Shown one piece after another: positions 10,432 to 40,123 of a DNA stretch of 40,249 nt. Numbering within the stretch: position 1 is the stretch's first letter; each line of letters begins with the position of its first letter. Source of the DNA: Natronomonas aquatica. GTDB taxonomy: Archaea; Halobacteriota; Halobacteria; Halobacteriales; Haloarculaceae. The stretch spans positions 1-40,249 of the forward strand of contig NZ_JAHLKM010000019.1 of assembly GCF_024449025.1 (NCBI RefSeq), in the 5' to 3' direction. The translations under genes and the position numbers were made by a program. A model generated the notes under the pieces. It saw only the letters and a program-made list of their open reading frames with translations, had not been told where the DNA came from and did no database searches.

Positions 10432-10432
10432 C

Positions 10433-10726: not shown

Positions 10727-10780
10727 ACCTACATATTGGTGCTACTCCCGCAAAAGCATACTGCTGATACGAATATCGGC

Positions 10781-14674: not shown

Positions 14675-14719
14675 CAAGCCACAAGCGCGGACCAGACGAA
14701 AACAGCCGGTATTGACCGA

Positions 14720-15916: not shown

Positions 15917-16051
15917 TATCGCTGCTTAGTAGTCTATCTACAATTATTTGTCTTCTCTGATCCGGCACTGTTCGAATTCGTATTGAACGGTAATGTCGGA
16001 CGAGTGTTCGCTGTTCATGGCAGTCCCCGTTCGCCTCAACGAAGCTGACAG

Positions 16052-16780: not shown

Positions 16781-16962
16781 TTGAATGAATTGATAACGGG
16801 GTGATCTATATGAGCTATGCGCGGAACTTCGATACTCCGTCGTGTTAATACGTTGTTATTGGATGTAGTCATGGTTTGTGTGTTATCGGTTCCCACGTAA
16901 TCCCAGTAGAGTGGCAACTTCCACCTTCAGCTCCAGCTGCCAGTTCGAAGATACCGCGGGAA

Positions 16963-17376
16963 TCACGACTCATCACCGGCGTTGATCCACTGGAGTGCCG
17001 CGTCACGATTGTCGATTTCGAAGTACCGCATTTCTCCGGGTGCGGCCGGCCAGACAGGACGAATCATATTCCACCAGTCAAAGAGCAGTTTTGCCCAGAT
17101 CGAATCACCGACTGCGACGTAACGGCTGATAGTGAACTGCGATCCGAAGCGTAGGTCGGGGATGATGCCGTACACGTGGGATAAAAACGTCGAAAGCGTC
17201 CAGTCCGGGACTACTTCCAGAACACGGACAGCGCCATATTTGTCAGTCTTCTCGGCGAGCAATGAGTACAGTTCGTCGTAGCCCTGGCGGGTCCCCCGGC
17301 CGACTCGGATTGCGACGAGGTCTCCCTCAGTTTCATCGAGAACATCGAACATCTGCGTGCTTGTATTAGGTGTCAT
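16963..17376 (-). CDS. SpoIIAA/STAS-like (DUF3478) protein
   Basis: 137 residues from ATG 17376, chosen because the CDF stop codon ends at 17378, one base before it; the longer frame upstream overlaps the CDF coding region. The pattern matches STAS/SEC14-type SpoIIAA-like proteins: an N-terminal strand (DLVAIRVGRGTRQGYDELY), a central strand-helix (AVRVLEVVP), ISRYVAVGDSIWAKLLFDWW, and the terminal EMRYFEIDNRDAALQWI. These small soluble proteins bind lipids or act as protein-interaction modules. It is the last gene of the zntA, CDF, STAS operon. A role in regulating or stabilising the CDF transporter is inference. Confidence 0.75.
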   Translation of the reverse strand: MTPNTSTQMFDVLDETEGDLVAIRVGRGTRQGYDELYSLLAEKTDKYGAVRVLEVVPDWTLSTFLSHVYGIIPDLRFGSQFTISRYVAVGDSIWAKLLFDWWNMIRPVWPAAPGEMRYFEIDNRDAALQWINAGDES

Positions 17377-17377
17377 G

Positions 17378-18313
17378 TTAGTGGTCGTGACTTGTGCGGT
17401 CGACGATTCGCGTATCAATTTCCATCTCACCTTCAAGCTCGACGGTCGCGTGATCGATCCCACGGTTCGAAAGAAGCTGATGGACTTGAGAGCGAATCGC
17501 CTGTTGTTGGTCTAATGATGGTGGTTCATATTGAAGTCGCACCGTCGCTACCGTCAGCTGACTACAAACTTGCCAGACGTGCAGGTCATCAACGTCCACG
17601 ACGCCGTCGATAGTCGTCAGTTCGTCCCGAAGTCCATCCGGTGAAATCGGACTTCGCTCTAGGAGAATCGATGTGCTTCCGCGGAGCACTTTCCCTGCCG
17701 AAACCAGTATTAAGACGCCGATGAGGACGGCAGCGACCGGATCAGCGATGGGTAAATCGAAGATAACGACGGCTAATGTCGAGATGATCACCGCGACTGA
17801 GCCACCGGCATCGCCGAGGAGATGGTAGAATGCCCCGCGCTCGTTGAGGCTCATTTCCCCACCCTGAACGATATAGACCGACCCCAAATTGACAAGCAAG
17901 CCGCCGACGGCGATGATCAACGTCATCGTGGGATCGATCGAGACCGGATTCAAGAATCGATGATAGGATTCCCACAGAATATATCCGACCATCGGAACGA
18001 GCAGTATCCCGTTAAGAAACGCAGCGACTGGCTCCAATCGATGGAGACCGTACGACCACTCATCCCCGCCTTCGAACCGTTCTGCAGTGTAGCTAGCCCC
18101 GAATGCCATCGCGTATGCGAGCATATCGAACAGCATGTGAAGCGCATCACTGATGAGGGCGACCGAACCGAAGAGGAGCCCACCAGCCAGTTCAACCAAG
18201 AATCCAAGGAAATTGACGACCGCTACGAGCGCAAGCCGACGCGTACTACCACCTGTTTCAGATTCTGCTACGTGTTCTGCTGTCTGCTCCTGGATATGCT
18301 CGTGACGCCTCAT
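17378..18313 (-). CDS. CDF (cation diffusion facilitator) Zn/Cd efflux protein
   Basis: 311 residues from ATG 18313 (a TTG at 18322 is in frame). Six membrane segments carry the CDF metal site: DALHMLFD in TM2 (HxxxD) and HLLGDAGGS in TM5 (HxxxD), the Zn/Cd-type tetrad. A cytoplasmic C-terminal domain (about 215-311) follows, with DVDDLHVWQV. The termini are His-containing (MRRHEH; SHDH). CDF proteins export Zn2+, Cd2+ or similar ions by H+ antiport. The gene starts 33 bp after the CPC ATPase on the same strand and is followed after one base by the STAS-like gene, so the three form one operon. Confidence 0.9.
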   Translation of the reverse strand: MRRHEHIQEQTAEHVAESETGGSTRRLALVAVVNFLGFLVELAGGLLFGSVALISDALHMLFDMLAYAMAFGASYTAERFEGGDEWSYGLHRLEPVAAFLNGILLVPMVGYILWESYHRFLNPVSIDPTMTLIIAVGGLLVNLGSVYIVQGGEMSLNERGAFYHLLGDAGGSVAVIISTLAVVIFDLPIADPVAAVLIGVLILVSAGKVLRGSTSILLERSPISPDGLRDELTTIDGVVDVDDLHVWQVCSQLTVATVRLQYEPPSLDQQQAIRSQVHQLLSNRGIDHATVELEGEMEIDTRIVDRTSHDH

Positions 18314-18346
18314 ACGTTCCAATTGGATATGCTCGTGATTTCCGTA

Positions 18347-20776: not shown

Positions 20777-20882
20777 TACTCACCACTACCCACCACAGAT
20801 TTATTAAATCGGCTGCTATAAAACACCCTTTCTATAGTATACTCTAATAAAAAATCCAAATCTAGTTATTAATTCCGCCAAG

Positions 20883-21305
20883 TTATTCCACTCGAACTGT
20901 CCCGACCATCCCAGAACTCTCATGTGGAATACAATAGTATCCGTACGTTCCGGGTTGATCGAACGTGTACTCGTAGTTCTCGCCCGGAGCGATGAGTCCC
21001 TCAGCAATCCGGTTCCTTGCAACACTTTCTGACTCGAAGTCACCACTTGCGAAGTACGTCGCCTCTTCTGGAATCTCGTCTTCATACGCTGTGACCGTAT
21101 GCTGAATATCGCTCTCGTTCGTCCACGTTACCGTCTCCCCAGATTCGATCGTCGCAGTCTTCGGTTCAAACGTGTGGCTGTCGGGCATCGTGACGGTCTG
21201 GCTCGACGATGACAATCCGTTCAAACATCCGGCGGTGGTGAGCATACCTAGGGTGACAGTGCTAAGTCGCAATACGGTCCGTCGGTCGTAGACTTTGAGT
21301 GGCAT
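20883..21305 (-). CDS. Halocyanin-like blue copper lipoprotein
   Basis: 140 residues. The N-terminus has RRTVLR and a hydrophobic stretch, then a lipobox TTAGC with Cys 27 as the lipidation site, so export (probably by Tat) and anchoring to the outer face of the membrane are predicted. The mature part is a cupredoxin; the copper ligands are His 69 (IQHT), Cys 125, His 128 and Met 133 (YYCIPHESSGM). Such proteins shuttle electrons or bind copper. The start follows the ZIP stop by 24 bp on the same strand, so it is the third gene of the multicopper oxidase, ZIP, halocyanin operon. It may donate or accept electrons for the oxidase. Confidence 0.9.
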   Translation of the reverse strand: MPLKVYDRRTVLRLSTVTLGMLTTAGCLNGLSSSSQTVTMPDSHTFEPKTATIESGETVTWTNESDIQHTVTAYEDEIPEEATYFASGDFESESVARNRIAEGLIAPGENYEYTFDQPGTYGYYCIPHESSGMVGTVRVE

Positions 21306-21329
21306 TGGAACTGAGATAGGTGGTTCCTA

Positions 21330-22580
21330 TTAGAGCACCACGAAGAGGTCGGTCACGTACATAACGGCGAGGCCGAGCAGGAATGCAAGCAGATTCGTGG
21401 CGCTGGCAACACGACCGCCAGCATCCCGGACCATCCCCGCAATTTCCCAATTGACCTGCAGGATTGCACCCACCCCGATTGCGAGGAAGAAGGCACCAAT
21501 CGTCGGCGAGTATGCGAGACTGCCGATCCAACCACCGAGGATAACGGGCGCGCCGGCGATGATGCCGAGTGCGGTGAAGTGCTTGAGCGACGGGCGTTTT
21601 CCGCGGGCAACCGGCGCAACGACAGCCGGGCCTTCCGTCACGTTGTGAAGCATGAATCCGATCACGAGGAAAGCACCAAGCGACACACGCCCGAGTGCAA
21701 ACGAACTCCCGATGGCAAGCCCCTCAGCGAGGTTGTGCAGGCCGATCCCAACCGCGACCAGATACGCGATCCAGAGACCGCTACTCGCCCGATTATCACC
21801 GGCTGCAACACGACCTTCACGCCACGCGCTGATCGCCTGGACGAGCAGGAGTGCGCCGAAGATCCCGAAGACGACCAAGAGATTCCCTTCGTACGCGCCC
21901 GGAACTCGTTCGGCGAGTTCGAACGCTTCGAACCCGGCGTCAAACGCCAAGAAGCCCAGTACGCCGGCCGCAAACAAGAGCACGGCGTGTAGCCACCGAT
22001 CGCTCATCGTCTTGATGTAGGGGAACCAGAGCATCCCTAATGCGACCGGGATCACGCCCACGAACAGTCCAATTACTGCGAGTGTCCCAAGCAGTCCGAG
22101 GCTAAATCCGGGTGATTGGCTCGGAGCGACGATCGTATTATGGAAGGTCGCTCCCTCAGAGAGTACGAGAGCGACTTCGAGATCCCACCCTGGATTCCAG
22201 TGATACGGGATCACGACCTGTGCGCTTTCCATCGGGGCGAGCGTTCGGTCACCACCAGCTCCTTCGACACGGAAATCCCAGTAGGCTTCATCGACCAGGA
22301 CTTGCGAAATTGTCACGGACTCGGGCCCGTTATTCGTCACGTGAAGCACGACCGTTTCGTCGCTCGGAAGCGTCGTGTGCGTGACCGTTACGTCAGGAAG
22401 TGGTTCGCCGCTCTGAACCCCGGCGAGCGGTGACGTGAACGCAAACACGCCTAAAACGAGTCCGAGCAACACGATCGGGAGTAACGCACTGACCCATTTC
22501 GGAAGGCCGAGCGGTTGTGTTATCTCGTTCTCAGCTGGTACACTACCGTCCGTTGTCGAATCCCGTGTCTTGTCCGTCAT
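21330..22580 (-). CDS. ZIP-family metal transporter with N-terminal extracytoplasmic domain
   Basis: 416 residues. One membrane anchor (residues about 28-50) is followed by a ~110-residue soluble domain with beta-strand character (VTVTHTTLPSDETVVLHVTN; VVIPYHWNPGWDLEVALVL). Seven or eight membrane segments then carry the ZIP metal site: GIGLHNLAEGLAIG and GFMLHNVTEGPAVV (the usual HNxPEG replaced by HN-LA/VT-EG). ZIP proteins move Zn2+, Fe2+, Mn2+ or Cd2+ into the cytoplasm. The start codon lies one base after the multicopper oxidase stop, so the two are coupled. Ferroxidase-linked or copper-linked uptake is plausible; the ion is not fixed by sequence. Confidence 0.85.
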   Translation of the reverse strand: MTDKTRDSTTDGSVPAENEITQPLGLPKWVSALLPIVLLGLVLGVFAFTSPLAGVQSGEPLPDVTVTHTTLPSDETVVLHVTNNGPESVTISQVLVDEAYWDFRVEGAGGDRTLAPMESAQVVIPYHWNPGWDLEVALVLSEGATFHNTIVAPSQSPGFSLGLLGTLAVIGLFVGVIPVALGMLWFPYIKTMSDRWLHAVLLFAAGVLGFLAFDAGFEAFELAERVPGAYEGNLLVVFGIFGALLLVQAISAWREGRVAAGDNRASSGLWIAYLVAVGIGLHNLAEGLAIGSSFALGRVSLGAFLVIGFMLHNVTEGPAVVAPVARGKRPSLKHFTALGIIAGAPVILGGWIGSLAYSPTIGAFFLAIGVGAILQVNWEIAGMVRDAGGRVASATNLLAFLLGLAVMYVTDLFVVL

Positions 22581-22581
22581 G

Positions 22582-23841
22582 TTAGACCACCTCGAAGAAG
22601 CTCATCCAGCCGAGTTCGGCGAACTCCGACTGATGGGCGTGGAACATGTACAGCCCGGGCTCGTGGTCCGAGTAGTCAATCTCGATGATACCGCGCTGAG
22701 CCTGGCACTGCATGATCGTGTCCACGGTCTTGTTTGTCGGCGTCAGCGTCGTCCCGTGGTCGTAATAGTCGAAGAACTGTGAGTGCGTATGGAACGAATT
22801 GATGAGGTCGAATTCCGTTGCATTGGAGAGGTACACGCGCTGGCGTTCGTTCTTGTCGATTTGGATAGGCCGTTTCGTCTCGCCCGCCGTCCAGTTACCG
22901 TTGCCGTCGGTGCTACCGACCCCGTAGCCGAACGCCCGTGTGTTCGCCGCGTAGACCTCGTTGCCGCCGTCGAAGTTGGTGTCGAACGAGTTCATCACCA
23001 TCACCATCTCGTTGACGGCGTGGTTTTCGGCGTACTCGTGATTCCGGCTCTTCGCCTCTCCGACGAGCTGCTCTCGGAAGTCGTCGGTAATCGGACCCGG
23101 GTAATTGACGTACTCGCGTGGATTATCCCTGACGCGTTCGGGGTCCGGATCGACGATGATCGTGCCGTAGAGTCCGCGGTGGATGTGCTCTTTCAACGGG
23201 AGTGAGTGGCAGTGATAGAAGTGCGTGCCAGCGGGTTGAGCGATCCATTCGTAGGTGAATGACTCGCCCGTATCGAGTACGCCAGGCCCGTTCTGTGGAA
23301 TCCCATCCATTCGCGGGTTGAGATTCTTCAAGTGTGGATGAATCGTGTGGGCATGTCGCCCAAGGTTCGTAAATTTGACACGAATCAGGTCGCCCTCAAC
23401 CGCACGGATTGTCGGACCTGGCACCTGGCCGTTGAACGCCCACGCTTGGAACTCAACGCCCGGGGCGATGGTGATTGTCGTGTCGACGGCCGTGAACTCG
23501 AATTCCCGTACGGTTCGGCCATTCTCCTCGTAAACCTGTTGAGGAACGTTATCTTGCCCGCTGTCCCCGGTATTGAATGCAGTAAGGAACTCGTGCGGGT
23601 CGAAATCCAAATCCTGGTATTCACCTACCGCACCGAAGTTACCGTGTTCTTCCTCGTCCTCGTGGTCAGACGAGGCACTTACTTGAGTACTCCCGAGTCC
23701 GACTGCTGCACTCCCGGCGATACCGAGACTGCCGAGTACCGTGCGGCGACTGACGCTCGCTTCATCAGTGAGCGATTCGACCAGTCGCTGTTCGAGTCGT
23801 TCTGTGACATCCGCTGCACTACCGTAATCTATCGATGGCAT
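22582..23841 (-). CDS. Tat-exported two-domain multicopper oxidase
   Basis: 419 residues. A twin-arginine signal starts at SRRTVLGSLGIAG (Arg 32-33). Two cupredoxin domains follow. Copper-binding motifs are HTIHPH (near 165-170), GTHFYHCHSLPLKEHIH (about 205-221, type 1 Cys 211), NSFHTHSQFF and MFHAHQSEFAELGW near the C-terminus. The second domain lacks a type 1 Cys, so the layout is that of two-domain oxidases or NirK-like reductases rather than three-domain laccases. The typical nitrite reductase Met ligand segment is not obvious. It is the first gene of the operon with ZIP and halocyanin, preceded by a TATA box and a dyad operator at 23897-23938. Ferroxidase or cuprous oxidase activity is inferred. 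Confidence 0.85.
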   Translation of the reverse strand: MPSIDYGSAADVTERLEQRLVESLTDEASVSRRTVLGSLGIAGSAAVGLGSTQVSASSDHEDEEEHGNFGAVGEYQDLDFDPHEFLTAFNTGDSGQDNVPQQVYEENGRTVREFEFTAVDTTITIAPGVEFQAWAFNGQVPGPTIRAVEGDLIRVKFTNLGRHAHTIHPHLKNLNPRMDGIPQNGPGVLDTGESFTYEWIAQPAGTHFYHCHSLPLKEHIHRGLYGTIIVDPDPERVRDNPREYVNYPGPITDDFREQLVGEAKSRNHEYAENHAVNEMVMVMNSFDTNFDGGNEVYAANTRAFGYGVGSTDGNGNWTAGETKRPIQIDKNERQRVYLSNATEFDLINSFHTHSQFFDYYDHGTTLTPTNKTVDTIMQCQAQRGIIEIDYSDHEPGLYMFHAHQSEFAELGWMSFFEVV

Positions 23842-24799: not shown

Positions 24800-25909
24800 T
24801 CAGAAATATCCGCCATTAGAATCAGATTGTTTTTGCAGTTCCCTACGGCGAAGATCTCGCTGTTCCTTCTCACTGAGTTCGCTGTAGTGTTCTTCTATGA
24901 TCTCCTCGCTCACATCGCAGCGATCACTGATTGTGTGTAGCGAAACACCTCGTCGAAGAAGATCTGAAATGTATCCATGACGAAGCGCAACCGGTGGTTT
25001 ACTCTCTGGACATTTCGAAGCGTGCCCCCCAGATTTCATCGCTTTGCAGTCATCGGGATTATTCCCAGCAGGGCACTCTTTGCCGACCACGCATGGGCGA
25101 CTCCATTTGTAGACATACTTGCGAATCGACGAGTCGGACAACCTTCCGTTAGTGCTTGCCAACAACGGAGACCTACCGTTCACCTCTACGTCAACCCGAT
25201 GCGTGTCGATATAGTCCTGAACGACTTGGGCAGCTTCATCATTCAGATACACGGTATTCTCGCTCTTAACGCCGTTCTTGAGCCGAGTTTCCCCTTCACG
25301 GTGCTGGAACTCTATGTATGTCTCATCTTCCGTGAAATGTACGTCACTACAGTCAAGCGACCGCAGACCGCTTGGACGGCGTCCTGTAGCCGTGAAGAGG
25401 ATCCAGACCACATGCTCACGCGTTGCGTACTCGTATTTCTCAAGATGAGTCAAAATCGAATCCAGCTCATCAGCAGTGAATTCTATGTCCCGTTTCCCTT
25501 CACCGGGATTTAGCGTCGGGATCTTGATTTTGGTATGGAGATGTTGAGGCGCAGCGTCAATTGACTCCAGGAAGCGAATGAACTTCCGAAGTAGGTACAT
25601 CTCGTCACGCATCGTCTTATTCGATAGTGAACCCTCTTTTTCGTGCGCTTCGTCACGTCGCCAGATTTTGAATTTCTGTAGCAGGCGTCCGTTGAATTCG
25701 GTCGTGTCTGTGGTGTCTTGTTTTTCGCAGAATTTCACGAACCGTTCCAGCTCATCTTCGTACTCAGAGAGGGTATTGGGTGCGAGCTCTGATCGTTCCT
25801 CGTCAAGAAACATTTGAACCGCTTCCGCGGGCGCGAGCGGTTCCAGTGAAGGACTCGAACCATCGATGACCTGCTGAATCTCGTCCAGCAATTCGCGGTC
25901 GGCCGTCAT
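24800..25909 (-). CDS. Tyrosine recombinase/integrase (XerC/D-like), first copy
   Basis: 369 residues. A SAM-like core-binding domain (about 25-130) precedes the catalytic domain. Catalytic positions seen are Arg in ATGRRPSGLRSLDCSDV, Lys in LKNGVKS, Arg in PPVALRHGYIS and Tyr in IEEHYSEL. The usual His of the HxxR box is Val here. An inserted Cys-rich segment (CVVGKECPAGNNPDDC, then ASKCPE) matches the four-Cys arrangement in the second integrase of this window and may bind zinc. Haloarchaeal elements use such enzymes for site-specific integration. It is divergent from the unknown gene at 26064, with a palindrome between them. The missing His may reduce activity. Confidence 0.85.
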   Translation of the reverse strand: MTADRELLDEIQQVIDGSSPSLEPLAPAEAVQMFLDEERSELAPNTLSEYEDELERFVKFCEKQDTTDTTEFNGRLLQKFKIWRRDEAHEKEGSLSNKTMRDEMYLLRKFIRFLESIDAAPQHLHTKIKIPTLNPGEGKRDIEFTADELDSILTHLEKYEYATREHVVWILFTATGRRPSGLRSLDCSDVHFTEDETYIEFQHREGETRLKNGVKSENTVYLNDEAAQVVQDYIDTHRVDVEVNGRSPLLASTNGRLSDSSIRKYVYKWSRPCVVGKECPAGNNPDDCKAMKSGGHASKCPESKPPVALRHGYISDLLRRGVSLHTISDRCDVSEEIIEEHYSELSEKEQRDLRRRELQKQSDSNGGYF

Positions 25910-29557: not shown

Positions 29558-31213
29558 TCACTTCGTCTGATCGTGGTCTCTCTCAAGCCGTTGAACTTGT
29601 TCTAGCAACTCTTGGTTGAATTCATTACCATCCTCGCCATGATGAATTCTATAATGGCAATTAGGACAAAGTCCCACAACGGTATCTGGCGTATCAGATC
29701 CTTCATCGCTTAATTCGTGAATATGGTGTGCATGTAGATACGGTTCGCCAGTCTTACTAGTGAATGGGGCAGGATCGCCACATCCCTCACAAATACCATC
29801 GGCACGAGCCATTACGTATTCGCGGATTGCTGTGGAGCGTGAATACTGGGATTTCGTGGTTCTCGTCGTTGTTTCCTTCGTTACGGATTCAATAGCATCT
29901 TCCTTCGCTTTCTCTCGAAGTTCGTTTAGGTCATCTTTGACGAGCTCTTGGTCTTTAGCAGCATCGTGGCGGTCTTGGGACGCATGAGGTGCTTTGTTGT
30001 CTTCTACTATATCAGACGAACTGCGTGAGTTGCTAGTATCCTCTTTTGTTTCGTTTCGGTCTGTAGATGTATCCAAATCGCTATTTTCGGCTGTTGAATC
30101 TATGATCGAGTCTGTTTGATATTTATGTGGGGAGTCATCATCAGCTAACACTCCTTCTGGTTTCCTACTATTCGACTCATCTTCAGACTCATTCTGTTTA
30201 TGAGATGTGGATGATTCTGCTTGAGAATCAACTCTTGAGGACCGGGGCGCTGAGTCCCTATGTGCTTGCGAAGGATCGTCTCCGATTACTTCTAAACGCC
30301 CAGGTGGAAATGCATAGTGGTCAATATTATCATTAGAAAGAGTTTGCAACGGTATTGGTTTCTCACCAAGATAATCCGGATATTCTTCTGATAGCGTTTC
30401 TTCAAATAGAACCACGACCACAGAGGCATACTGATCGTACTGAGGATTCTCATCAGCAACCGAAACGCCTGTTTGCCCGTTGTGATATGCGATATAATCT
30501 TTGGCAGAGATCGGGGGGAGATTGACGATAACAGCGTTTTCTGGTTCACTTGCCTCACGATCTTGAACCCTCATGCCAACTTCAAAATGCTTCTCAGTAT
30601 CAACTAACGTCTCATCAATCGTTTTTATATGATCTGTGAAGTAGTCCTCTGCTCTCACAGAGACTGTCTTGCAGACACCGAATCCGTCTTCAATCTCAAT
30701 CACCGATACATCAGAACCGACAACATCATCTCGGACAGGACCAATATTCATCAATCCGTCACCGATAGGAACCATTCCATTACCGGCGTCACTTATACTC
30801 ACGATTGTTGTTTCAATTAACTCACTATCTCCATCCGCTTCATTTTCATCGGGTGGGACATACTCAAGAATCCCATACCCACTTTCATGCCTATCTAACC
30901 CTCGTTGGTGAATTGTTGCGTGAGCATCACCGTAGTCAATTGAAAATCCTGCATCATATGAAACAATATCCTGAAGCTCTTCAATATAATTTGAAGGCGT
31001 GATGCCTCTCGGTCTTTTAATTCTTGCAAATGGTCCCGGAAGCTTCAACGCCTCTATTCGTTCACCGACTGCGTCCGCTTCTACCGGACCGAGGATTATG
31101 TCATTCTGTCCTGTTGTTTCAACGATCCCATTTCCCGAACTATCGATTTTGTGTATACGGGCCTCGAAGGTTTTTCCATTAGGTCCGGCGTTCCCCACAA
31201 CGTCCCGATCCAT
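29558..31213 (-). CDS. HNH endonuclease with N-terminal TRAM-like repeats
   Basis: 551 residues. The N-terminal third has two repeats resembling TRAM-like beta-barrel nucleic-acid-binding modules (ARIHKIDSSGNGIVE ... NDIILGPVEADAVGERI and TTIVSISDAGNGMVPIG ... NIGPVRDDVVGSDV). A Ser/Asp/Glu-rich linker (about 315-430) follows. The C-terminus is an HNH nuclease: zinc Cys in CEGCGDPAPF and CPNCHYRIHHG, and the catalytic HAHHIHELS. This layout recalls modification-dependent restriction enzymes such as McrA, so defence against foreign DNA is plausible. The coding sequence is A/T-rich relative to the metal block, a sign of separate origin. It stands alone on its strand next to the IS6-ended element. 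Confidence 0.8.
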   Translation of the reverse strand: MDRDVVGNAGPNGKTFEARIHKIDSSGNGIVETTGQNDIILGPVEADAVGERIEALKLPGPFARIKRPRGITPSNYIEELQDIVSYDAGFSIDYGDAHATIHQRGLDRHESGYGILEYVPPDENEADGDSELIETTIVSISDAGNGMVPIGDGLMNIGPVRDDVVGSDVSVIEIEDGFGVCKTVSVRAEDYFTDHIKTIDETLVDTEKHFEVGMRVQDREASEPENAVIVNLPPISAKDYIAYHNGQTGVSVADENPQYDQYASVVVVLFEETLSEEYPDYLGEKPIPLQTLSNDNIDHYAFPPGRLEVIGDDPSQAHRDSAPRSSRVDSQAESSTSHKQNESEDESNSRKPEGVLADDDSPHKYQTDSIIDSTAENSDLDTSTDRNETKEDTSNSRSSSDIVEDNKAPHASQDRHDAAKDQELVKDDLNELREKAKEDAIESVTKETTTRTTKSQYSRSTAIREYVMARADGICEGCGDPAPFTSKTGEPYLHAHHIHELSDEGSDTPDTVVGLCPNCHYRIHHGEDGNEFNQELLEQVQRLERDHDQTK

Positions 31214-31938: not shown

Positions 31939-32952
31939 TCAAAGGTCGTCTAGATATTCGCGCCGTTGTTCCATTTTTTCTTCCTCAGTACGCGAATCGT
32001 AGTGCATCGATAGTACCTTTTCGCTAACATTAGCACGGTCCCCAACCGCTTTCATTGGCCAGCCTTCCTGCAGCGCGTGTGTAATCCCGCCCCTACGAAG
32101 GGCGTGTGGATTCACCGTTGAAGGGCACTCAGACGCTGAATCATACGAATTCGCCTCACATTCGTCGAGATTACGACCGTGGGGACATTCCCGCGTGACT
32201 ACACACGGGCGGGTATACCGGTAGCAGTCACCGCGCAGCGTCGTCGTGTGAGCTCGTCCTTCGGGGGTTGAGATCAGAGCGTTTCGTCCATTCGAATCGG
32301 CCACAGCTGGACGGTTGTTTTCCATCCAGTCGTCGAGTATCTCACAGACTTCGTCCGACAGCGCCACGAATCGTTCACCTTTCTTTTGATTTTTCAGTGT
32401 CGTTCCAGACTCTGGACGATGCACCACTTGTAGAGATTGGTTGACTGAGTCGTAGTCATCGCAATCTAACGCGTGAATTTCACCGACACGCATCATCGTG
32501 TGCCACATCAGGGTCAGCACGACGTGCGGCCGCGAGGCGTATTCATACTTTTCGAGGTAGGTAAGGATCTGCTCTGCCCGATCGGAATCCAGCATCTCAT
32601 CGCGGATATTATCGTCACCGCTCAACGTCGGGGATAGAACCTTTGTGTGGAGATCCTGCTCGACAGCGTCGATGGACTCCAACCACTTGACAAACACACG
32701 GAGTGTGTCCATCTGCGTCTTCTCTGTTGCAGGCGACAGATCGCCTTCCATCCGTCGCCAAATCCTGAATTCATGTAGTTGGCGACCAGACAGATCGTTC
32801 AGGTTCGTAATCTCAGCCTCGTCATTGCACCACCTGATGAAGTGTCCAAGCCGTGACCGGTGGGAGTAGATCGTCGCTTGGGAGACGTTGTTCTCGCGGT
32901 CAGCGATGTACAGTTCGAGTGCGCGTTCGGGTTCGATGGGTTCCAAACTCAT
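31939..32952 (-). CDS. Tyrosine recombinase/integrase (XerC/D-like), second copy
   Basis: 337 residues, related to the integrase at 24800-25909 by the same layout and by shared LEKYEYA..PHVV, HTK and Cys-rich segments. The catalytic set is complete: Arg in TMMRVGEIHALDCDD, Lys in LKNQKKGE, HALRRGGIT with His and Arg, and Tyr in SMHYDSR. Four Cys occur between the conserved boxes (CVVTRECPHGRNLDEC and SECPS), possibly a zinc site. A TATA-like box at about 33113-33121 implies a long leader (~138 nt) with three palindromes. It is likely the active integrase of the element next to it. Confidence 0.88.
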   Translation of the reverse strand: MSLEPIEPERALELYIADRENNVSQATIYSHRSRLGHFIRWCNDEAEITNLNDLSGRQLHEFRIWRRMEGDLSPATEKTQMDTLRVFVKWLESIDAVEQDLHTKVLSPTLSGDDNIRDEMLDSDRAEQILTYLEKYEYASRPHVVLTLMWHTMMRVGEIHALDCDDYDSVNQSLQVVHRPESGTTLKNQKKGERFVALSDEVCEILDDWMENNRPAVADSNGRNALISTPEGRAHTTTLRGDCYRYTRPCVVTRECPHGRNLDECEANSYDSASECPSTVNPHALRRGGITHALQEGWPMKAVGDRANVSEKVLSMHYDSRTEEEKMEQRREYLDDL

Positions 32953-33400: not shown

Positions 33401-34792
33401 TCAGGACGGCGTGAGTAGGTCGTCGATGTCCGCGACAGTAAACAACGACCACGAGTCATCGAGTTGTGCTTCGAGACCGTCGACGAAGCCGCTTTTCGAA
33501 AACAGGGCGAACTGCTCGTCTCGATCCGACGGTCCCCATCGGACGTTCTCCGCCTTTGCTCGCAAACTCTCGACGAGGTCTTCCCCAACCGGATCTGTCG
33601 TCCACTTACATTCGGCGAGGAGGACTCGGTCGTCGTTCGGTGCCAGCCCGACGATATCGATCTCCTCTTCTCCGTACCACCAGCGACCGACTTCGGAGTA
33701 CGGTTCGAATGCACCGCGTCGAATCCCTTCCCAGACGGCTTCTTGACACACGTCCTCGAACGTGGTTGCGACGTGCGTTGGGAGGTCCGGTTCAATCGTC
33801 CCGTCGTACACGATCTCCGGTGCTTCCTCGATACTGGATCGATGCGGCTCGACATACCGAAACCAGAACCGAAGGAACTCGTCCGCAACCCGGTACCGTG
33901 ACCGCTTCGATTTCTTCCCCGAGGCCGTGACTGGGACATCTCGTTCGATGAGGCGGAGTCGGCGAAGTGTCTGTAAGTACTTCGAGAGCGGTCCCGAATC
34001 GATCCCCGTTGCGCCGGAGATCTCGTTCGGTGTCGTATGGCCCAATGCGACTGCTTCGAGGATACTCATGTACCGGGCTGGGTTTCGGAGCTCGGTGCGC
34101 AGGAGGAACTCGGGTTCGTTATACAGTACCGCAGACGGTGACAGGACGTGTGATCGAATGTTCGCTGCGAGCGACTGGTCGTAGTCGAACAGCGTGAGGT
34201 ACATCGGGGTACCACCCGTGACGGCATACGAGCGAACCGCGTCCGTGATGTCGTATGAGATGACCTCTCGTGCCTGTTGAAACGAAAACGGCGTTACGTC
34301 GAGTTGGGCCGTTCGTCGCCCGTACAGTGGGCTCTCGTGACCCAGGATCTCTGACTCCATCGTGCTCACGCTCGACCCACAGAGCACCAGCATCGAGTCC
34401 GTTCCGTCGAGCGCCTGGTCAACGAACGCTTGCATGTACGATGGAAGCGAGTCGTTCTCTTCGACGAGATACGGGAACTCGTCGATGACGACGACAAGAT
34501 CCTCTCGCTGGAGGTTCTCGCCGAGGTATTCGAACGCTTCGTCCCAACTGTCGATTCGCGGGACGCGTTCGTCGAAGTAGTCCGCAACTTGTTCGAGGAA
34601 CTTCTCGCGCTGTCGATGCCCGGCTTCCTGCGCGGCAAGGAAGTAAATGTGGGGACGGTCAGCACAGAATTCTTTGAGGAGTTCCGTTTTCCCGACCCGA
34701 CGCCGGCCATAGACGACAACGAAATCCGAACCGGAGGACTCCACCGCAGCGGTGAGTGTATCGAGTTCGTCCTCCCGGTCGTAGAAGGTCAT
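33401..34792 (-). CDS. Archaeal AAA ATPase with DUF234 nuclease-like C-terminus
   Basis: 463 residues. The start MTFYDREDELDTL is typical of the archaeal ATPase/DUF234 family. Walker A is GRRRVGKTELL (about 29-39) and Walker B is LVVVIDEFPYL (99-109). A winged-helix region follows (HTTPNEISGATGIDSGPLSKYL). The C-terminal DUF234 part has a PD-(D/E)xK-like core EEEIDIVGL ... VLLAECKW (near 375-395), with Asp, Glu and Lys as candidate catalytic residues. These proteins are abundant in archaea, often in mobile or defence contexts; function is not established. It is upstream in the same direction as nothing else; the PLD-ATPase gene ends 210 bp away on the same strand, so a link to that system is only positional. 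Confidence 0.85.
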   Translation of the reverse strand: MTFYDREDELDTLTAAVESSGSDFVVVYGRRRVGKTELLKEFCADRPHIYFLAAQEAGHRQREKFLEQVADYFDERVPRIDSWDEAFEYLGENLQREDLVVVIDEFPYLVEENDSLPSYMQAFVDQALDGTDSMLVLCGSSVSTMESEILGHESPLYGRRTAQLDVTPFSFQQAREVISYDITDAVRSYAVTGGTPMYLTLFDYDQSLAANIRSHVLSPSAVLYNEPEFLLRTELRNPARYMSILEAVALGHTTPNEISGATGIDSGPLSKYLQTLRRLRLIERDVPVTASGKKSKRSRYRVADEFLRFWFRYVEPHRSSIEEAPEIVYDGTIEPDLPTHVATTFEDVCQEAVWEGIRRGAFEPYSEVGRWWYGEEEIDIVGLAPNDDRVLLAECKWTTDPVGEDLVESLRAKAENVRWGPSDRDEQFALFSKSGFVDGLEAQLDDSWSLFTVADIDDLLTPS

Positions 34793-35002: not shown

Positions 35003-37282
35003 TCAGCTGCCGAGTAGACGTCTGAAGAATCCCGGTGAATTTGTCTCCTCTGAACCAGTTGGTTGGTCAGCGGCTTCACCGTTTTCTGCTGGTCCGTCAA
35101 GTAGTTCTTCAACCGAGTAGCCAATCCACTCAGCGAAGTCTTCCGGTGCACCGATATAGACACTTGTCCCAGATTTATCGGACATAAACCGCTTGTCCAG
35201 GCGTTTCTCGTAGTCGTAGACTTCCCAATCCTCGCGGTCGAAGTCAGCGTTCATCCCATCGGGTTCCGATTCGAACTGGACACGACCACCTTGGATGTCG
35301 CGCTGCCATTTGAGCCGTCCCGTATCGTACATCTGTTCCGCTGGCTCATTAGCAGGGAAGTACTCCGGGGGTTCTCGACCAGCCTCCTCGTAGAAGTCAC
35401 AGAAGATCTGGCGGACGTCTTCCACTGTGCCATTACCTTCGGTCCACGGCTGCTCTGCTAGCATGCGGCGAGCCACGTAACTGAATATCGGATTCTCTCG
35501 CTCTAGCACTTCTGCGAGATCGTCTTGGGCCTCATGGAATCCCGGATCTTCTGGATTCGAGGGGAACGACACGTCCATACTGAGGATCTTCATTCGGTTC
35601 CGGAACTCCGACTTCGGCAGTGAATCGTTGGTCGTAAGAATCAGACACGGCTGATCGACACTGGTCGGCGTCCAATCACTCCAGTAATTTCGGATTGGGC
35701 TCCATCCCTGAATATTACTTTTTTCGGCGTCGATAATCGCATACGGGAAACTGGTGTCCCACTCCCGAACCCCGCGAATCTCATCAACACCCACATCGTC
35801 TGCATCGACTCCGGAAATGACGGTATTGTCCGAAACCAGCCGGAGAATGTATTCCGTGAGTTTGTCTTTTCCGGCGTCGCTGTTCCCTTCGATGTACAGG
35901 TGCTGTAGAACATTGTCGAGGGTCCGCGACGGGGAAGAGAGTTCCTCAGCGTACTGGTTGGCAAACGGGGCCCAGAATCCGTAGAGGAATGCTTCGTACA
36001 TCTGGGCCATCACGGCGGTCGGTGTCTGGGAATACCCGTGATTCTTGACGGTCTCGACATAAGCCTCGATAGTATCGAGGCAATGATCCAGAACCCCAGG
36101 GGTCGGGGGATCCGTAGCGACTAAGATCAGGTCCTCATCATCGCCGATGATGACCTGCTCGGCTTCGGGGACGACGGACATAGTGGGGATTTCCGTTGAT
36201 TCCCGAACTTGGTTGTTGTAGGCGCTCAGCGGCGCTGTAATACTATGATCCTCGACAGTCGCACCGCGAGAACGGAGCGTAGAACTGAACTCATCGGCGA
36301 CGTCTCTGTCCACTTTACTGGTCCCCATTCGGATTTTCTTCTCCGGCGTCCGAACCCGGGGCCGGTCTAACGTCTTGGTAAGGGCCGTTTCGTGGTCTGA
36401 TTCAACGAGCCCCACATCGGGTGATTCCTCGCTGTCGTCCTCCGCTTCTGAAGGTTCGTTCGAATCAGTGTCATCGTCGTCGCCTGATCCATCTGGTTTC
36501 ACGACCGTCCGGTCGGCCCTTTGGGGCTCATCGACGAATGCGACTGTTTCGTCCGCTTCCTCAGGGTCATCGACTGCTGCCGTTACTCGATCTGCAATCT
36601 CCTTCAGGTCCTCCGTCGCGTCTTGGTTGAGCGCGGCCGTATCGCTCACGTCTAAATCTCCTGACCCGACCCAGTACTCGATGCGGTTTTCGCGCTCTTC
36701 GGGAGTGTCTGCGTCTTCGATGGCTTCGACCAGCCCGTCAAGAAGCGTTTGGCTACTGTACCGTTCTCGGTATTCGTCGATGAACGCTGAAAACTCTTCA
36801 TCAAGCTCTGTTCCGGTCTCAGTGGTGATGATCGAGATCTGGTTCGTGTGGTACTCCCACGAGTTGACGGACAGGTTCGCGGATCCATGAACGAGCTTTA
36901 CCGTATCGTCATGCCGGACGATACGGTACATCTTTGAGTGGACAATCTTCCGATTCTTCAGTCGAACAGTCAGCCGGTCATCCTGCCGGAGCTGAACGAG
37001 CGACCGCGCGGTTGAGATATCTTTGACCTGATTGGCGTAGTCGTTAGCATTCCCGACCAGCACGTCGAGTGAATCGATGTCGTACTCGGTCAGCATCCGA
37101 ACCATCAGTTCCGGTGTCTCAGCATACGTCACCGCATCTACGTGGCGGGCTCCCTCGAACAGGTCGAGAAAGTCTTCGCGCTTTTTCACCATCGCTAACC
37201 GATACCCCGCCTCCCCGGAACCGTAGAATTCCGGCATATCAGCGTACTTGTCGAACGAAATCTTTGCTGTTATCTCATCCAT
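35003..37282 (-). CDS. PLD-type nuclease fused to an SF3/AAA-like ATPase domain
   Basis: 759 residues from ATG 37282 (ATG 37345 would add 21 basic residues and is possible). Residues 110-145 contain a single PLD/HKD motif, IVHSKMYRIV (His 115, Lys 117) with VHGSANLSVNSWE (Asn 136), as in PLD-superfamily nucleases, which work as dimers. An acidic linker (about 235-300) follows. The C-terminal half looks like a P4/SF3-type helicase ATPase: Walker A IEGNSDAGKDKL (464-475), Walker B-like FPYAIIDAEKS (512-522), sensor-1 CLILTTND (546-553) and EFRNRMKIL with candidate Arg fingers. It is encoded directly after HerA on the same strand, about 100 bp apart. A DNA-targeting defence role is inferred. Confidence 0.75.
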   Translation of the reverse strand: MDEITAKISFDKYADMPEFYGSGEAGYRLAMVKKREDFLDLFEGARHVDAVTYAETPELMVRMLTEYDIDSLDVLVGNANDYANQVKDISTARSLVQLRQDDRLTVRLKNRKIVHSKMYRIVRHDDTVKLVHGSANLSVNSWEYHTNQISIITTETGTELDEEFSAFIDEYRERYSSQTLLDGLVEAIEDADTPEERENRIEYWVGSGDLDVSDTAALNQDATEDLKEIADRVTAAVDDPEEADETVAFVDEPQRADRTVVKPDGSGDDDDTDSNEPSEAEDDSEESPDVGLVESDHETALTKTLDRPRVRTPEKKIRMGTSKVDRDVADEFSSTLRSRGATVEDHSITAPLSAYNNQVRESTEIPTMSVVPEAEQVIIGDDEDLILVATDPPTPGVLDHCLDTIEAYVETVKNHGYSQTPTAVMAQMYEAFLYGFWAPFANQYAEELSSPSRTLDNVLQHLYIEGNSDAGKDKLTEYILRLVSDNTVISGVDADDVGVDEIRGVREWDTSFPYAIIDAEKSNIQGWSPIRNYWSDWTPTSVDQPCLILTTNDSLPKSEFRNRMKILSMDVSFPSNPEDPGFHEAQDDLAEVLERENPIFSYVARRMLAEQPWTEGNGTVEDVRQIFCDFYEEAGREPPEYFPANEPAEQMYDTGRLKWQRDIQGGRVQFESEPDGMNADFDREDWEVYDYEKRLDKRFMSDKSGTSVYIGAPEDFAEWIGYSVEELLDGPAENGEAADQPTGSEETNSPGFFRRLLGS

Positions 37283-37384
37283 TGTCTTGACTGTGTTTAC
37301 TCGACACGTGAGACGCTCGTTCTGCTCACGGTGTCTCGACGGCACTCACGCTCTGCAGTGACTGTCTCGAACCGCCGATCTCGC

Positions 37385-39028
37385 TCAATCAAGGCTCCGT
37401 ACCCCCGTCGAATCCCCCTCACCGAAATCAGCGGACTCTGATTGGGTTGGTTCACGCTGTCGCTGATCGTACGCCTTACGCCAAGCATTGATGACGTCCT
37501 GGCTCTCTGCCCCGTGAGATGTGCGTCGACGCCGGACTTGAATCAGCGCTGGCGTGTTCATCGCGTCACCAGAGACCACCGCTTGTCCGGGCGTCAGGCC
37601 GGGTAACTCGCGGAGTACATCTTCACCTGCCGCCTCGACAGAGTTCTTGATCGCGTCTTGATCGTTCGGGTTCTTGATTTGCATCGAAATCTGTGTGCCA
37701 CACTGCGACAGCACGTCCTGATCAATCTTTGAAGGACGTTGACTGATGATGCCCAGCCCGAACCCGAACTTGCGCCCCTCGGACGTGATCGTACGCATAA
37801 TATCTAGCGAGGGAGCGTCGCCCGAAGCCGGTGCGAACCGGTGCCCCTCTTCGAACAGCGCGAAGATCGGGTGCTCGATCTGGGAGTCGCGGTCTCGGAC
37901 GGCATCGAGACGTTCCCGGTACATCCGTCGCAGGAGCACGGTCGTGATGAGTTGCTGGTTCCACCGATCCAGCGTATCCATCTGTAGGACGGTACACTGG
38001 CCAGGGTCCACGATTTCGTCCAGTGGGACGTTGTCTTCAGGGTGGAATAGATCGTTCCGCTCTATCGAGCGGCGGAGCCGCCACTCCAGTGCACCGACAC
38101 TCGCGTCATCGTCGTCGTATATCCGGTGCATCTGATCGATGAGTTCATCGACGCCCCACGTCCGACTCTCCTGTCGCTGCATCGCGCGCCATGCCGTCGA
38201 CAGCCGCTCTTGCATTCGGTTACTCGGATTGTCCAAGACGGCCATGACATCGCCAATGTCCAGTTCCGAAATGCGTACGCGAAGCCGCTCCGGATCGTAG
38301 TAGACGACCTCTGGTTCGTATCCGTCCTCGCCCTGGAATGCTTCGTGGCCCTGCATTTCTGCGAGAGTATCATACTCCCCGTGCGGGTCGAATACGAGCA
38401 GAGATGCACGGGAGCTTGGACGCATCATCTCTTCAATCAACACGGATACTGTGTACGATTTCCCGCTGCCCGTGGATGCTAGAATTGCCAGGTGCGTCGA
38501 GGCGAATTCCTTGATCGGAACGTGGATGTTCGTCGCTTCGGGCGACCGATTCAATAGCCACCCCAGGTACGCAGTTCCGTCCAGTTCTGTCACGTCTGTG
38601 CTGTCTGTCTCGCACCCGAGGTTCGGTAGGACTGTTTCGAGCTGCTGATCGGGTGCAATCGACAACGGCGTTCCCGGAGACGGGAGCTGCCGCGGGTTGG
38701 CGAACGTGGTCATATTGGTGTGGTAGTACCCGATGACCGTCGCCTTGAGTCGGTACAGTTCGGTGTCGTCGGTCTGGACGCCGAGCGTTGCTGCGACGGT
38801 GTCTGGACCGACTTCCGGGTCTGCGAGGAAGCCGTCCGGGAGTCCGCGAATCAATTCACGGTTCGTCACGCGGGCGAGCACCGACCGGTTCTCCCCATCG
38901 ACGGAGACCGTGTAGGTGATGAACTCCCCCGTTTTGATGGATTTGTCCGCAGGGGCGACGAAGACGAATTCGTTCGGATCCTCCCCGGGTCCGGCGACGG
39001 TGCCGACGACCGATTGCTTCCCAGACAT
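37385..39028 (-). CDS. herA: HerA-type DNA translocase ATPase
   Basis: 547 residues from ATG 39028. The frame continues to 39259, but that extension is the shadow of the transposase coding region. An N-terminal HAS-barrel-like domain (about 1-120) precedes the FtsK/HerA ATPase: Walker A ASTGSGKSYT (184-193), VFDPHGEYD (212-220), Walker B IFALFEEGHRF (387-397), sensor-like IISQRPSKID (427-436) and the QIKNPNDQDAI region. HerA forms hexameric rings that pump dsDNA and partners with a nuclease, NurA in archaeal repair or other nucleases in anti-phage systems. No NurA is seen; the next gene encodes a PLD nuclease. An IS1595-like element ends 42 bp upstream, so the native promoter may be lost. Confidence 0.88.
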   Translation of the reverse strand: MSGKQSVVGTVAGPGEDPNEFVFVAPADKSIKTGEFITYTVSVDGENRSVLARVTNRELIRGLPDGFLADPEVGPDTVAATLGVQTDDTELYRLKATVIGYYHTNMTTFANPRQLPSPGTPLSIAPDQQLETVLPNLGCETDSTDVTELDGTAYLGWLLNRSPEATNIHVPIKEFASTHLAILASTGSGKSYTVSVLIEEMMRPSSRASLLVFDPHGEYDTLAEMQGHEAFQGEDGYEPEVVYYDPERLRVRISELDIGDVMAVLDNPSNRMQERLSTAWRAMQRQESRTWGVDELIDQMHRIYDDDDASVGALEWRLRRSIERNDLFHPEDNVPLDEIVDPGQCTVLQMDTLDRWNQQLITTVLLRRMYRERLDAVRDRDSQIEHPIFALFEEGHRFAPASGDAPSLDIMRTITSEGRKFGFGLGIISQRPSKIDQDVLSQCGTQISMQIKNPNDQDAIKNSVEAAGEDVLRELPGLTPGQAVVSGDAMNTPALIQVRRRRTSHGAESQDVINAWRKAYDQRQREPTQSESADFGEGDSTGVRSLD

Positions 39029-39093
39029 CAGACCACCCCCCGGCGCTCGTGCGCCTGCCACTCGGTGTTTCGCTCTTCGGTAGACTGGCGGAA

Positions 39094-40062
39094 CTAGCGG
39101 AGTACGTTGACGGCGATGGAATCTACGAGACCGTGGATCGGTGCCCCAGTAAGGTTCAGTGACCGGAGGAAGCCGTAGGTCCGAGCGGCCTGCTCCAAGC
39201 CCTGCTTGGACAGGCCGCGGAACTTCGCCAACCACGGTTGGAGCAGTGACCAGAGACACTCTACCTGGTTCGTGTGGACGCCTTCGTCGGAGACGTACCT
39301 CTCGTCGTGGACAACGTATCGGTGATCATGCTCCATCCCTCGGTAAGCTGGCAGTCCATCGGTCCAGACCTCTCCCAGCGGCTGGGAGAGGTCGTCCGCT
39401 TCCTCGATAACTGGCCCAAGGTCATCTTCATAGTCGCTTCCTTCCTGAGCTGAGACCACGCGAAGCACGTCGCGGCAGGCCGCGACGAGCGTCAGTTCGT
39501 CACCCTGATCCCCTGTCCAGCGGGTACGTCCACCCTCGGGCGACCCGCCGCGGTCGAGTCCCTCCCGCGGCGGATCTTGGCCTTTGAAGCCCGAACACAC
39601 CTGCTGTGTTTCATCGACCTGTGTTGGCCCATCGACTGTCTGGGAGATGCGCTCCCAGACAGTCGGAAATCCCCGACAGAACGTGGTCTCAAACTCTCTT
39701 AGCTGGTCGTGAAGCGTCGTGTAACACGGTGAAAGGAGTTCAGCGATTTGGGTAATGCTGAGCAGTGTGTCAGCGTAGAGGATGAAGGCGATGAGGAACT
39801 CACCTGGGGTGAGTTCCGAATCGTAGAAGGGTGTCCACCGCGTGTACGTGGTTTTCCAGTCACAGCGGCCACACCAGATACGGTCAGAGCCGTTGAGAGC
39901 GTGGAGGCTGTCTGCACCGCAGTGTGGACAGGAGCGTTCTTCCCAGATCGTTTTGAGACGCCGCTCGACGATGGTGTCGAGCGGATCGGCCCGAAATTCT
40001 ATTACCCCAAGTTCCACAAGTTCCGATATCCTCTGGCCGAAGGCAGGACGGTCTTCATGCAT
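39094..40062 (-). CDS. IS1595-family DDE transposase
   Basis: 322 residues. An N-terminal zinc ribbon (CPHCGADSLHALNGSDRIWCGRCDW) is followed by a catalytic core with Asp in VDETQQV, Asp in WTDGLPAY and Glu in HTNQVECLWSLL, the ISXO2-like DDE arrangement of IS1595 elements. No in-frame stop or frameshift is seen, so the enzyme may be active. The stop codon TAG at 39094-39096 abuts the left inverted repeat. The coding sequence is unusually rich in perfect long inverted repeats (see the repeat entry). An N-terminal extension upstream of ATG 40062 is not needed. Confidence 0.85.
   Translation of the reverse strand: MHEDRPAFGQRISELVELGVIEFRADPLDTIVERRLKTIWEERSCPHCGADSLHALNGSDRIWCGRCDWKTTYTRWTPFYDSELTPGEFLIAFILYADTLLSITQIAELLSPCYTTLHDQLREFETTFCRGFPTVWERISQTVDGPTQVDETQQVCSGFKGQDPPREGLDRGGSPEGGRTRWTGDQGDELTLVAACRDVLRVVSAQEGSDYEDDLGPVIEEADDLSQPLGEVWTDGLPAYRGMEHDHRYVVHDERYVSDEGVHTNQVECLWSLLQPWLAKFRGLSKQGLEQAARTYGFLRSLNLTGAPIHGLVDSIAVNVLR
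39185..39984. repeat. Seven hairpin-forming inverted repeats inside the transposase gene
   Basis: Perfect or near-perfect inverted repeats: 39185-39218 (8-bp plus 7-bp stem with a 1-nt bulge), 39367-39378/39382-39393 (12-bp arms), 39468-39476/39479-39487 (9-bp), 39545-39553/39565-39573 (9-bp), 39633-39646/39652-39665 (14-bp), 39795-39804/39808-39817 (10-bp), 39961-39969/39976-39984 (9-bp). All fall in the coding sequence with intact reading frame. The density exceeds that seen by eye in other genes of this window. Confidence 0.8.
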
Positions 40063-40123
40063 ACCCGTTTTTGCCGGGCCAGAGGCACTAATGCTCCTGG
40101 TTCCGCCAGTCTACCGAAGAGCG

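What the first reader, a model, noticed from the sequence alone, without database searches (positions are those of the whole stretch)
35003..39028. HerA translocase paired with a PLD-nuclease/ATPase fusion: candidate defence system
Seen: a HerA-type ATPase (Walker A at residues 184-193) is followed on the same strand by a protein with an HxK motif plus GSANLS (PLD superfamily) and a C-terminal SF3/AAA-like Walker A (464-475), Walker B-like and sensor-1 segments. Known: HerA works with a nuclease, NurA in archaea, and SIR2 or DUF4297 partners in anti-phage systems. Inference: here the PLD-ATPase replaces the usual nuclease, making a two-gene DNA-targeting defence module in an element-rich island. 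A DUF234 ATPase lies next to it.
Basis: partly seen in the sequence, partly recalled or inferred. Interest (0 to 1): 0.8.

Follow-up and report, generated by a model that had tools for sequence, protein, structure and literature searches.

The report
Truncated HerA operon with Argonaute-linked nuclease
In a salt-loving archaeon, a DNA motor (HerA) and a DNA-cutting protein of the family that works with Argonaute in antiviral defence are the surviving end of a larger DNA-degrading gene set that a mobile element cut short, which suggests that Argonaute-linked nucleases can team up with complete DNA-end-processing machines.

Summary
The two proteins are real. HerA (37385-39028, -) is followed by a PLD nuclease fused to an SF3-like ATPase (about 35003-37282, -). 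They are not a stand-alone two-gene system in which PLD replaces the nuclease.

In related haloarchaea this HerA is the last gene of an operon Mre11-Rad50-NurA-G5-HerA, and in the closest relatives the PLD gene follows it. In the window a 1053-bp IS1595-like element abuts HerA and leaves only the last 12 or so codons of G5. A second operon copy elsewhere in the genome is intact except for HerA, which is split between two contig ends carrying IS ends.

The PLD-ATPase belongs to the AgaP family, the Argonaute-associated PLD proteins shown by others to restrict plasmid and virus DNA (Cheng 2024). Family members recur in several gene orders with Mre11-Rad50-NurA-HerA, AddAB-like helicase-nucleases and/or Argonaute. 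One operon is Ago-PLD-Mre11-Rad50-NurA-G5-HerA. The SF3-like ATPase half is invariant but not mentioned in the AgaP paper. The window's genome has no Argonaute.

Best reading: a defence nuclease that starts cleavage and hands ends to a processive degradation machine, here IS-truncated. The defence idea is partly supported; the two-gene idea is not. New variant of a known kind.

The parts
39071..40123 (-). IS1595-like insertion sequence, 1053 bp, perfect 24-bp terminal inverted repeats (39071-39094 and 40100-40123), transposase ORF 39094-40062
   Evidence: (DDE_Tnp_IS1595); no target-site duplication at its ends
39026..39075 (-). remnant of gene G5 (221-235 aa in relatives): last codons ..(N)TEWQAHERRGVV-stop, overlapping the HerA start; its first bases coincide with the IS end
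   Evidence: complete G5 in L002 5626-6291
37385..39028 (-). HerA-type translocase (547 aa), intact
   Evidence: 80-97% identical orthologues at the 3' end of Mre11-Rad50-NurA-G5-HerA operons
38456..38470 (-). HerA Walker A, GSGKS (residues 187-191)
   Evidence: sequence
35003..37282 (-). AgaP-family PLD nuclease / SF3-like ATPase fusion (759 aa from the conserved start M22; 780 aa from the upstream GTG at 37345)
36932..36940 (-). PLD motif part 1, H136-S-K138
   Evidence: invariant in 81 homologues
36875..36886 (-). PLD motif part 2, G154-S-A-N157
   Evidence: invariant G, S, N in 81 homologues
35243..36100 (-). C-terminal SF3/D5-like ATPase domain region
   Evidence: (phrog_1139 DNA primase in 4 of 8 members, best 0.0018)
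35867..35887 (-). ATPase Walker A, GNSDAGK (residues 487-493)
   Evidence: G487, G492, K493 invariant
35627..35629 (-). sensor-1-like N573 (followed by conserved R582 / invariant R584)
33401..34792 (-). DUF234/ATPase_2 protein (PADLOC PDC-S27-like); neighbour, probably not part of the system
   Evidence: recurs near several PLD or HerA loci

Best explanation
The pair is the surviving 3' end of a six-gene operon Mre11-Rad50-NurA-G5-HerA-PLD (shown in relatives), truncated here by an IS1595-like element (the IS end and the gene remnant are shown; the IS as cause is inferred). The PLD protein is a member of the AgaP family, a PLD nuclease fused to an SF3-type ring ATPase, which in other haloarchaea is the partner of long-A Argonaute (shown). 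Proposed mechanism (inferred): the PLD-ATPase assembles as a ring, recognises or is directed to foreign DNA and makes the first cut with its PLD sites. Mre11-Rad50 and the HerA-NurA pump-nuclease then load on the ends and degrade the DNA. In variants with Argonaute, the same pairing either gives guided targeting or supplies fragments as guides. AddAB-like helicase-nucleases take the place of Mre11-Rad50-NurA-HerA in other variants. In this genome there is no Argonaute, and the second operon copy has Mre11, Rad50, NurA and G5 but a HerA split by an IS, so the window's HerA might complete it.
For: Orthologous HerA (80-97%) ends a Mre11-Rad50-NurA-G5-HerA operon in L002, L003, L006, L010, L012, L013, L017, L028, L031, L111, L115, L120 and others; NurA by Pfam 3e-24. 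In L002 and L003 all six genes run on one strand with small gaps, HerA-93 or 114 bp-PLD (in L003 Mre11 is read as two frames). PLD also leads the same kind of operon in L077 (Ago-81-PLD-223-Mre11-Rad50-NurA-G5-HerA) and L078, and with a split PLD in L079. It sits beside a divergent Mre11-Rad50-NurA-HerA set in L088, L099, L100, L117, L118, L127. Co-occurrence PLD/HerA: 20 genomes against 6.7 expected, 14 of 20 within 12 kb; PLD/Ago: 20 against 6.0, 15 of 20 within 12 kb. AgaP identity: L083 is N. pellirubrum NC_019963.1 at 100%, and H105, K107, G157 and N160 of the paper match its motif positions; window protein against it 31%, E 2e-61. Catalytic and Walker residues invariant. Truncation: the match to L002 stops at 39075 at the IS end. 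Second copy: C56 plus C2. T. kodakarensis HerA-NurA degrades both strands of dsDNA and is proposed to be antiviral (PMC12977600).
Against: About 29 of 65 distinct PLD homologues examined have none of these machines within the searched 10 kb (some loci are cut by contig ends), so the PLD protein must be able to work alone or with other partners, and part of the linkage could be defence-island clustering. In many loci the PLD gene is convergent with the HerA operon, not co-transcribed. No experiment exists on the window-type PLD or this HerA. The IS lacks a target duplication, so more than one rearrangement occurred and activity of the remnant is unknown. AgaP alone was toxic in the absence of Ago in H. 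hispanica, yet this genome has no Ago. P values ignore shared ancestry.
Confidence: 0.55

Rival explanations
1. One reading: HerA and the PLD-ATPase alone form a two-component HerA-nuclease defence complex, like HerA-SIR2 or HerA-DUF4297, with PLD as the nuclease.
For: Adjacent and co-directional in the window, L002, L003 and two surveyed genomes G276, G216; HerA relatives in solved anti-phage complexes; only these two genes are intact here.
Against: NurA, the canonical HerA partner, and Mre11-Rad50 lie in the same operon in relatives. HerA scores better against the NurA-type repair HerA models than against the antiphage models and is far below the cut-offs of both. PLD homologues also pair with AddAB or Ago without HerA.
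Confidence: 0.12
2. Island neighbours: Mre11-Rad50-NurA-G5-HerA is an accessory DNA-repair or resection cassette and the PLD-ATPase is an independent AgaP-type defence gene; both accumulate in the same variable islands without acting together.
For: 29 of 65 PLD loci have no such machine nearby; many loci have convergent orientation and intervening genes; Eco57I-type methylase, Mrr_cat nuclease and other island genes recur around PLD.
Against: Tight co-directional operons in several different orders (MRNGH-PLD, PLD-MRNGH, Ago-PLD-MRNGH, MRNH-PLD-Ago) in separate branches of the PLD tree are hard to explain by passive clustering.
Confidence: 0.25
3. In this particular genome the pair is a decaying, non-functional relic left by IS activity.
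For: IS truncates G5 and separates HerA from an operon promoter; the second copy's HerA is also interrupted; no Ago.
Against: Both ORFs are full length with intact motifs and 93-97% identity to relatives, no internal stops.
Confidence: 0.3
4. The PLD-SF3 protein is a plasmid or virus replication/maintenance factor.
For: SF3/D5-type ATPases are typical of phage and plasmid primase-helicases.
Against: No relative in 50,697 phage records nor in the viral contig collection; the tested homologue restricts plasmids (PMC11442185); most copies are chromosomal without replication genes nearby.
Confidence: 0.05

Closest known systems
APAP system (long-A Argonaute + AgaP), Cheng et al. 2024, PMC11442185
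   Same: Window PLD protein is a full-length homologue of N. pellirubrum AgaP (31%, E 2e-61) with the same catalytic His, Lys, Gly, Ser, Asn; one 76% orthologue (L026, Halobaculum litoreum plasmid) directly precedes an Ago gene.
   Different: No Argonaute in the window or its genome; HxK to GSxN spacing is 18 residues here against about 50 in NpAgaP; partner genes are Mre11-Rad50-NurA-HerA; the paper does not mention the ATPase domain, HerA or Rad50.
Archaeal Mre11-Rad50-NurA-HerA operon
   Same: Same four families adjacent in one operon in relatives; the Rad50 has a CxxC hook and the Mre11 and HerA motifs are present.
   Different: Accessory and patchy in haloarchaea (31 of 293 genomes), carries an extra gene G5 of unknown function, often linked to PLD/AgaP or Ago; truncated to HerA in the window.
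HerA-SIR2 and HerA-DUF4297 anti-phage complexes
   Same: HerA-family hexameric ATPase beside a nuclease gene.
   Different: NurA, not PLD, is the operon's canonical HerA nuclease; HerA is far below the antiphage-HerA cut-offs.
PLD-family restriction enzymes (NgoAVII R protein, SauUSI)
   Same: Closest solved structures of the PLD half.
   Different: Their ATPase parts are of other types; here an SF3-like ATPase follows the PLD domain.

Membership tests
AgaP (Argonaute-associated PLD protein) | Homology over the whole protein to N. pellirubrum AgaP | tested here: met
   31% identity over 82% of the query, E 2e-61; alignment A1
AgaP (Argonaute-associated PLD protein) | Catalytic HxK ... GSxN | tested here: met
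   H136, K138, G154, S155, N157 invariant in 81 homologues
AgaP (Argonaute-associated PLD protein) | Split motif with about 50 residues between HxK and GSxN | tested here: not met
   18 residues from H to G in the window; long spacing only in the NpAgaP branch
APAP system | Argonaute gene next to agaP | tested here: not met
   No Piwi domain in the window's genome
APAP system | Restriction of plasmid and viral DNA | not testable with these tools
   Shown only for N. pellirubrum (PMC11442185)
Mre11-Rad50-NurA-HerA operon | HerA domain with intact Walker A | tested here: met
Mre11-Rad50-NurA-HerA operon | NurA, Mre11 and Rad50 in the same operon | tested here: not met
   Absent from the window (contig ends just beyond the IS); present in relatives and in the second copy on C56
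Two-gene HerA-nuclease defence (HerA-SIR2, HerA-DUF4297) | HerA of the antiphage subfamilies | tested here: not met
   NF042943/NF042944 at 105-109 bits against cut-offs of 800-850; the repair HerA model NF040819 scores higher, 171 bits, also under its cut-off of 970
Two-gene HerA-nuclease defence (HerA-SIR2, HerA-DUF4297) | Only two genes, conserved as a pair | tested here: not met
   Relatives show five to seven genes
PLD superfamily nuclease | PLD fold with HxK | tested here: met
   (1byr 1.1e-4, NgoAVII 2.7e-7)
SF3/D5-type ATPase | Walker A, Walker B-like acidic residue, sensor 1 and Arg in an SF3-like fold | tested here: met
   motifs; SV40 large T 3.5e-4 and phage primase-helicases in Foldseek; sequence-level support is weak

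The most novel reading that the evidence does not exclude
A haloarchaeal defence architecture in which an AgaP-type PLD-SF3 nuclease is coupled to a dedicated DNA-end-processing machine (Mre11-Rad50-NurA-HerA or an AddAB-like complex), with Argonaute as an optional module: the machine either finishes off cut DNA or makes the short DNA guides for Argonaute, a step that in bacteria has been attributed to the host's RecBCD.
Probability: 0.35. Interest if true: 0.8.

Novelty: new variant of a known kind. Interest (0 to 1): 0.6.

Why it matters
How long prokaryotic Argonautes obtain DNA guides and how their PLD partner acts are open questions. Operons that contain Argonaute, the PLD-ATPase and a complete end-processing machine make both testable in one salt-tolerant host. 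It also places an accessory HerA-NurA set next to defence genes, which bears on the recent proposal that HerA-NurA is antiviral rather than a repair factor (PMC12977600). I found no paper in the searched library that describes this combination; that library lacks most subscription journals.

Tried and rejected
Two-gene HerA-PLD module: rejected as the general case once relatives showed the NurA-containing operon. Phage or virus origin: no phage or viral-contig relative. Reported internal TAG/TGA in many PLD hits: the open frame is full length in these hits, so the stop must lie just upstream of the true start M22; not recoding. G5 as a HAS-barrel like the HerA N-terminus: suggested by eye, no profile match (alignments were too shallow to exclude it). 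ATPase domain by sequence: Pfam and PDB profile searches gave nothing usable; only the structure comparison supported SF3. HerA-B survey hit nearly all genomes at 35-39% identity, so that HerA is a core paralogue and useless for co-occurrence statistics. DUF234 ATPase as a system part: it recurs near HerA or PLD in several loci but the linkage was not tested.
Full report
What is in the window. On the minus strand, an IS1595-like transposase (39094-40062) is followed by HerA (37385-39028), a PLD/ATPase protein (35003-37282 from the conserved start; GTG at 37345 gives 780 aa) and a DUF234 ATPase (33401-34792). HerA matches DUF87 at 1e-35 and solved HerA proteins down to 1e-40. The next protein has a PLD domain (PLDc_2 1.3e-5) with HSK and GSAN, and a Walker A GNSDAGK.

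The pair is a remnant. The window is a complete contig, C21, of 40249 bases. The IS is 1053 bp with perfect 24-bp inverted repeats at 39071-39094 and 40100-40123. Between it and HerA only the last codons of another gene survive, read as ..(N)TEWQAHERRGVV-stop, which is the C-terminus of a 221-235-aa protein (G5) found upstream of HerA in relatives. The DNA match to the closest relative L002 (Halobellus inordinatus) stops at 39075, where the IS begins. The IS ends carry no target duplication, so this was not a single clean insertion; a deletion or recombination is inferred.

What stood upstream. In 30 relatives of the PLD protein fetched from the genome collection, the same HerA, where it occurs and the locus is long enough, ends an operon of Mre11, Rad50, NurA, G5 and HerA. 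Identification: NurA by Pfam at 3e-24; Rad50 by Walker A and a CPTC hook; Mre11 by DxH, GDLF, GNHD, HIH. In L002 and L003 the PLD gene follows HerA by 93-114 bp on the same strand, although Mre11 in L003 is read as two frames. The window's PLD groups with those two in the tree. NurA is therefore the canonical nuclease of this HerA, and PLD is an addition, not a replacement.

A second copy in the same genome. Contig C56 carries Mre11, Rad50, NurA, G5 and the first 270 residues of a second HerA; the rest of that HerA (263-547) lies at the end of contig C2. Both contig ends carry ends of another IS, and the two HerA pieces share a 7-bp repeat CCAAGAT, as expected for an IS insertion in HerA. That the window's HerA replaces it in function is speculation.

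The PLD protein is an AgaP. The N. pellirubrum locus L083 matches plasmid NC_019963.1 of strain DSM 15624 at 100%. Its motif positions H105, K107 and G157 are those mutated by Cheng et al. 2024 (PMC11442185). The window protein aligns to it at 31%, E 2e-61. [quoted passage not shown] The motif spacing differs: 18 residues here, about 50 in NpAgaP.

The ATPase half. In 81 homologues the PLD residues and also the Walker A glycines and lysine (G487, G492, K493), D539, N573 and R584 are invariant or nearly so. AlphaFold (mean pLDDT 70, both folded parts mostly 70-95, the linker disordered) and Foldseek give PLD nucleases for the first half (NgoAVII R protein 2.7e-7, SauUSI, Nuc) and SF3 helicases for the second (SV40 large T 3.5e-4; phage primase-helicases). 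Sequence profiles give only weak hints (phrog_1139 DNA primase in 4 of 8 members). The words ATPase, HerA and Rad50 do not occur in the AgaP paper.

Recurrent partners. In a survey of 293 Halobacteriales genomes, PLD-family genes occur in 63, HerA of this type in 31 and Piwi in 28. PLD and HerA co-occur in 20 genomes (6.7 expected) and lie within 12 kb in 14 of them; PLD and Ago co-occur in 20 (6.0 expected) and lie within 12 kb in 15 (not corrected for phylogeny). Operon types read directly: MRNGH-PLD (L002, L003); Ago-PLD-MRNGH (L077); PLD-MRNGH (L078; L079 with a split PLD); a divergent Mre11-Rad50-NurA-HerA followed by PLD (L088), by PLD then Ago (L100, and L099 with one gene between); PLD followed by that divergent set (L117, L118, L127); Ago-PLD-AddB-like-Cas4-like-AddA-like (L089-L092); PLD-Ago-PDDEXK protein-UvrD-like protein (L026, with a window-type PLD of 76%); Ago-PLD alone (L083, L101). 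One locus (L016) has a window-type PLD convergent with a metallophosphatase/SMC-like pair. These types lie on separate branches of the tree. About 29 of 65 distinct PLD loci have no such machine within 10 kb. The family was found only in Halobacteriales in a phylum-wide sample.

Mechanism proposed. Shown by others: AgaP-dependent restriction, and double-strand degradation by HerA-NurA of T. kodakarensis, with an antiviral role suggested (PMC12977600). Shown here by sequence: linkage, intact motifs, truncation. Inferred: the PLD-ATPase makes the first cut or nick after ring assembly, and the Mre11-Rad50 plus HerA-NurA, or AddAB-like, machine degrades from the ends. Where Ago is present, products may serve as guides, by analogy with the cooperation of CbAgo and RecBCD mentioned in PMC9040764.

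Earlier literature. Makarova 2009 and Ryazansky 2018 were checked: Ryazansky lists PLD, Cas4-type nucleases and UvrD-type helicases among Ago neighbours. Cheng 2024 notes an unspecified helicase near some ago-agaP operons. I found no description of the Mre11-Rad50-NurA-HerA link.

Limits. Gene calls in the loci come from a simple ORF filter of mine; starts are uncertain. The statistics ignore ancestry. Activity in the window's host is unknown.

Noticed in passing
L084, L085, L086, L087, L095, L098 (haloarchaeal plasmids): A conserved plasmid gene block: AddB-like, Cas4-like, AddA-like, an OB-fold/DnaQ-like exonuclease on the other strand, an AgaP about 81% identical to NpAgaP but no Ago, then (in most) E2-like and JAB/E1 ubiquitin-like genes and two DEAD helicases (L095 lacks the AddAB part and L087 and L098 lack the E1/E2 genes). 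Looks like an Ago-less AgaP variant.
   Followed up: partly
window 6668-23841: Heavy-metal block: three P-type ATPases (6668-8875, 12173-14674, 18347-20776), a cation diffusion facilitator (17378-18322) and a multicopper oxidase-like protein (22582-23841), judged from the translations only.
   Followed up: no
window 1408-2940, 24800-25909, 31939-32952: A serine recombinase-like ORF and two tyrosine recombinase ORFs (the second confirmed as Phage_integrase); integrases of the same family also lie near PLD genes in several relatives.
   Followed up: no
window 29558-31213: 551-aa protein with a C-terminal HNH nuclease domain (9e-9) and a long unannotated N-terminal part.
   Followed up: no
G5, e.g. 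L002 5626-6291: Uncharacterised 220-235-aa gene between NurA and HerA in this operon type; no Pfam match.
   Followed up: partly
control, Haloferax volcanii: The NurA Pfam model matches the H. volcanii genome above cut-off, although a review (PMC7776575) says HerA and NurA are absent there; 277 of 293 Halobacteriales also carry a divergent HerA.
   Followed up: no
L106 (G173): Ago gene split into two frames, directly before Mre11-Rad50-NurA-G5-HerA with no PLD gene in the locus.
   Followed up: no
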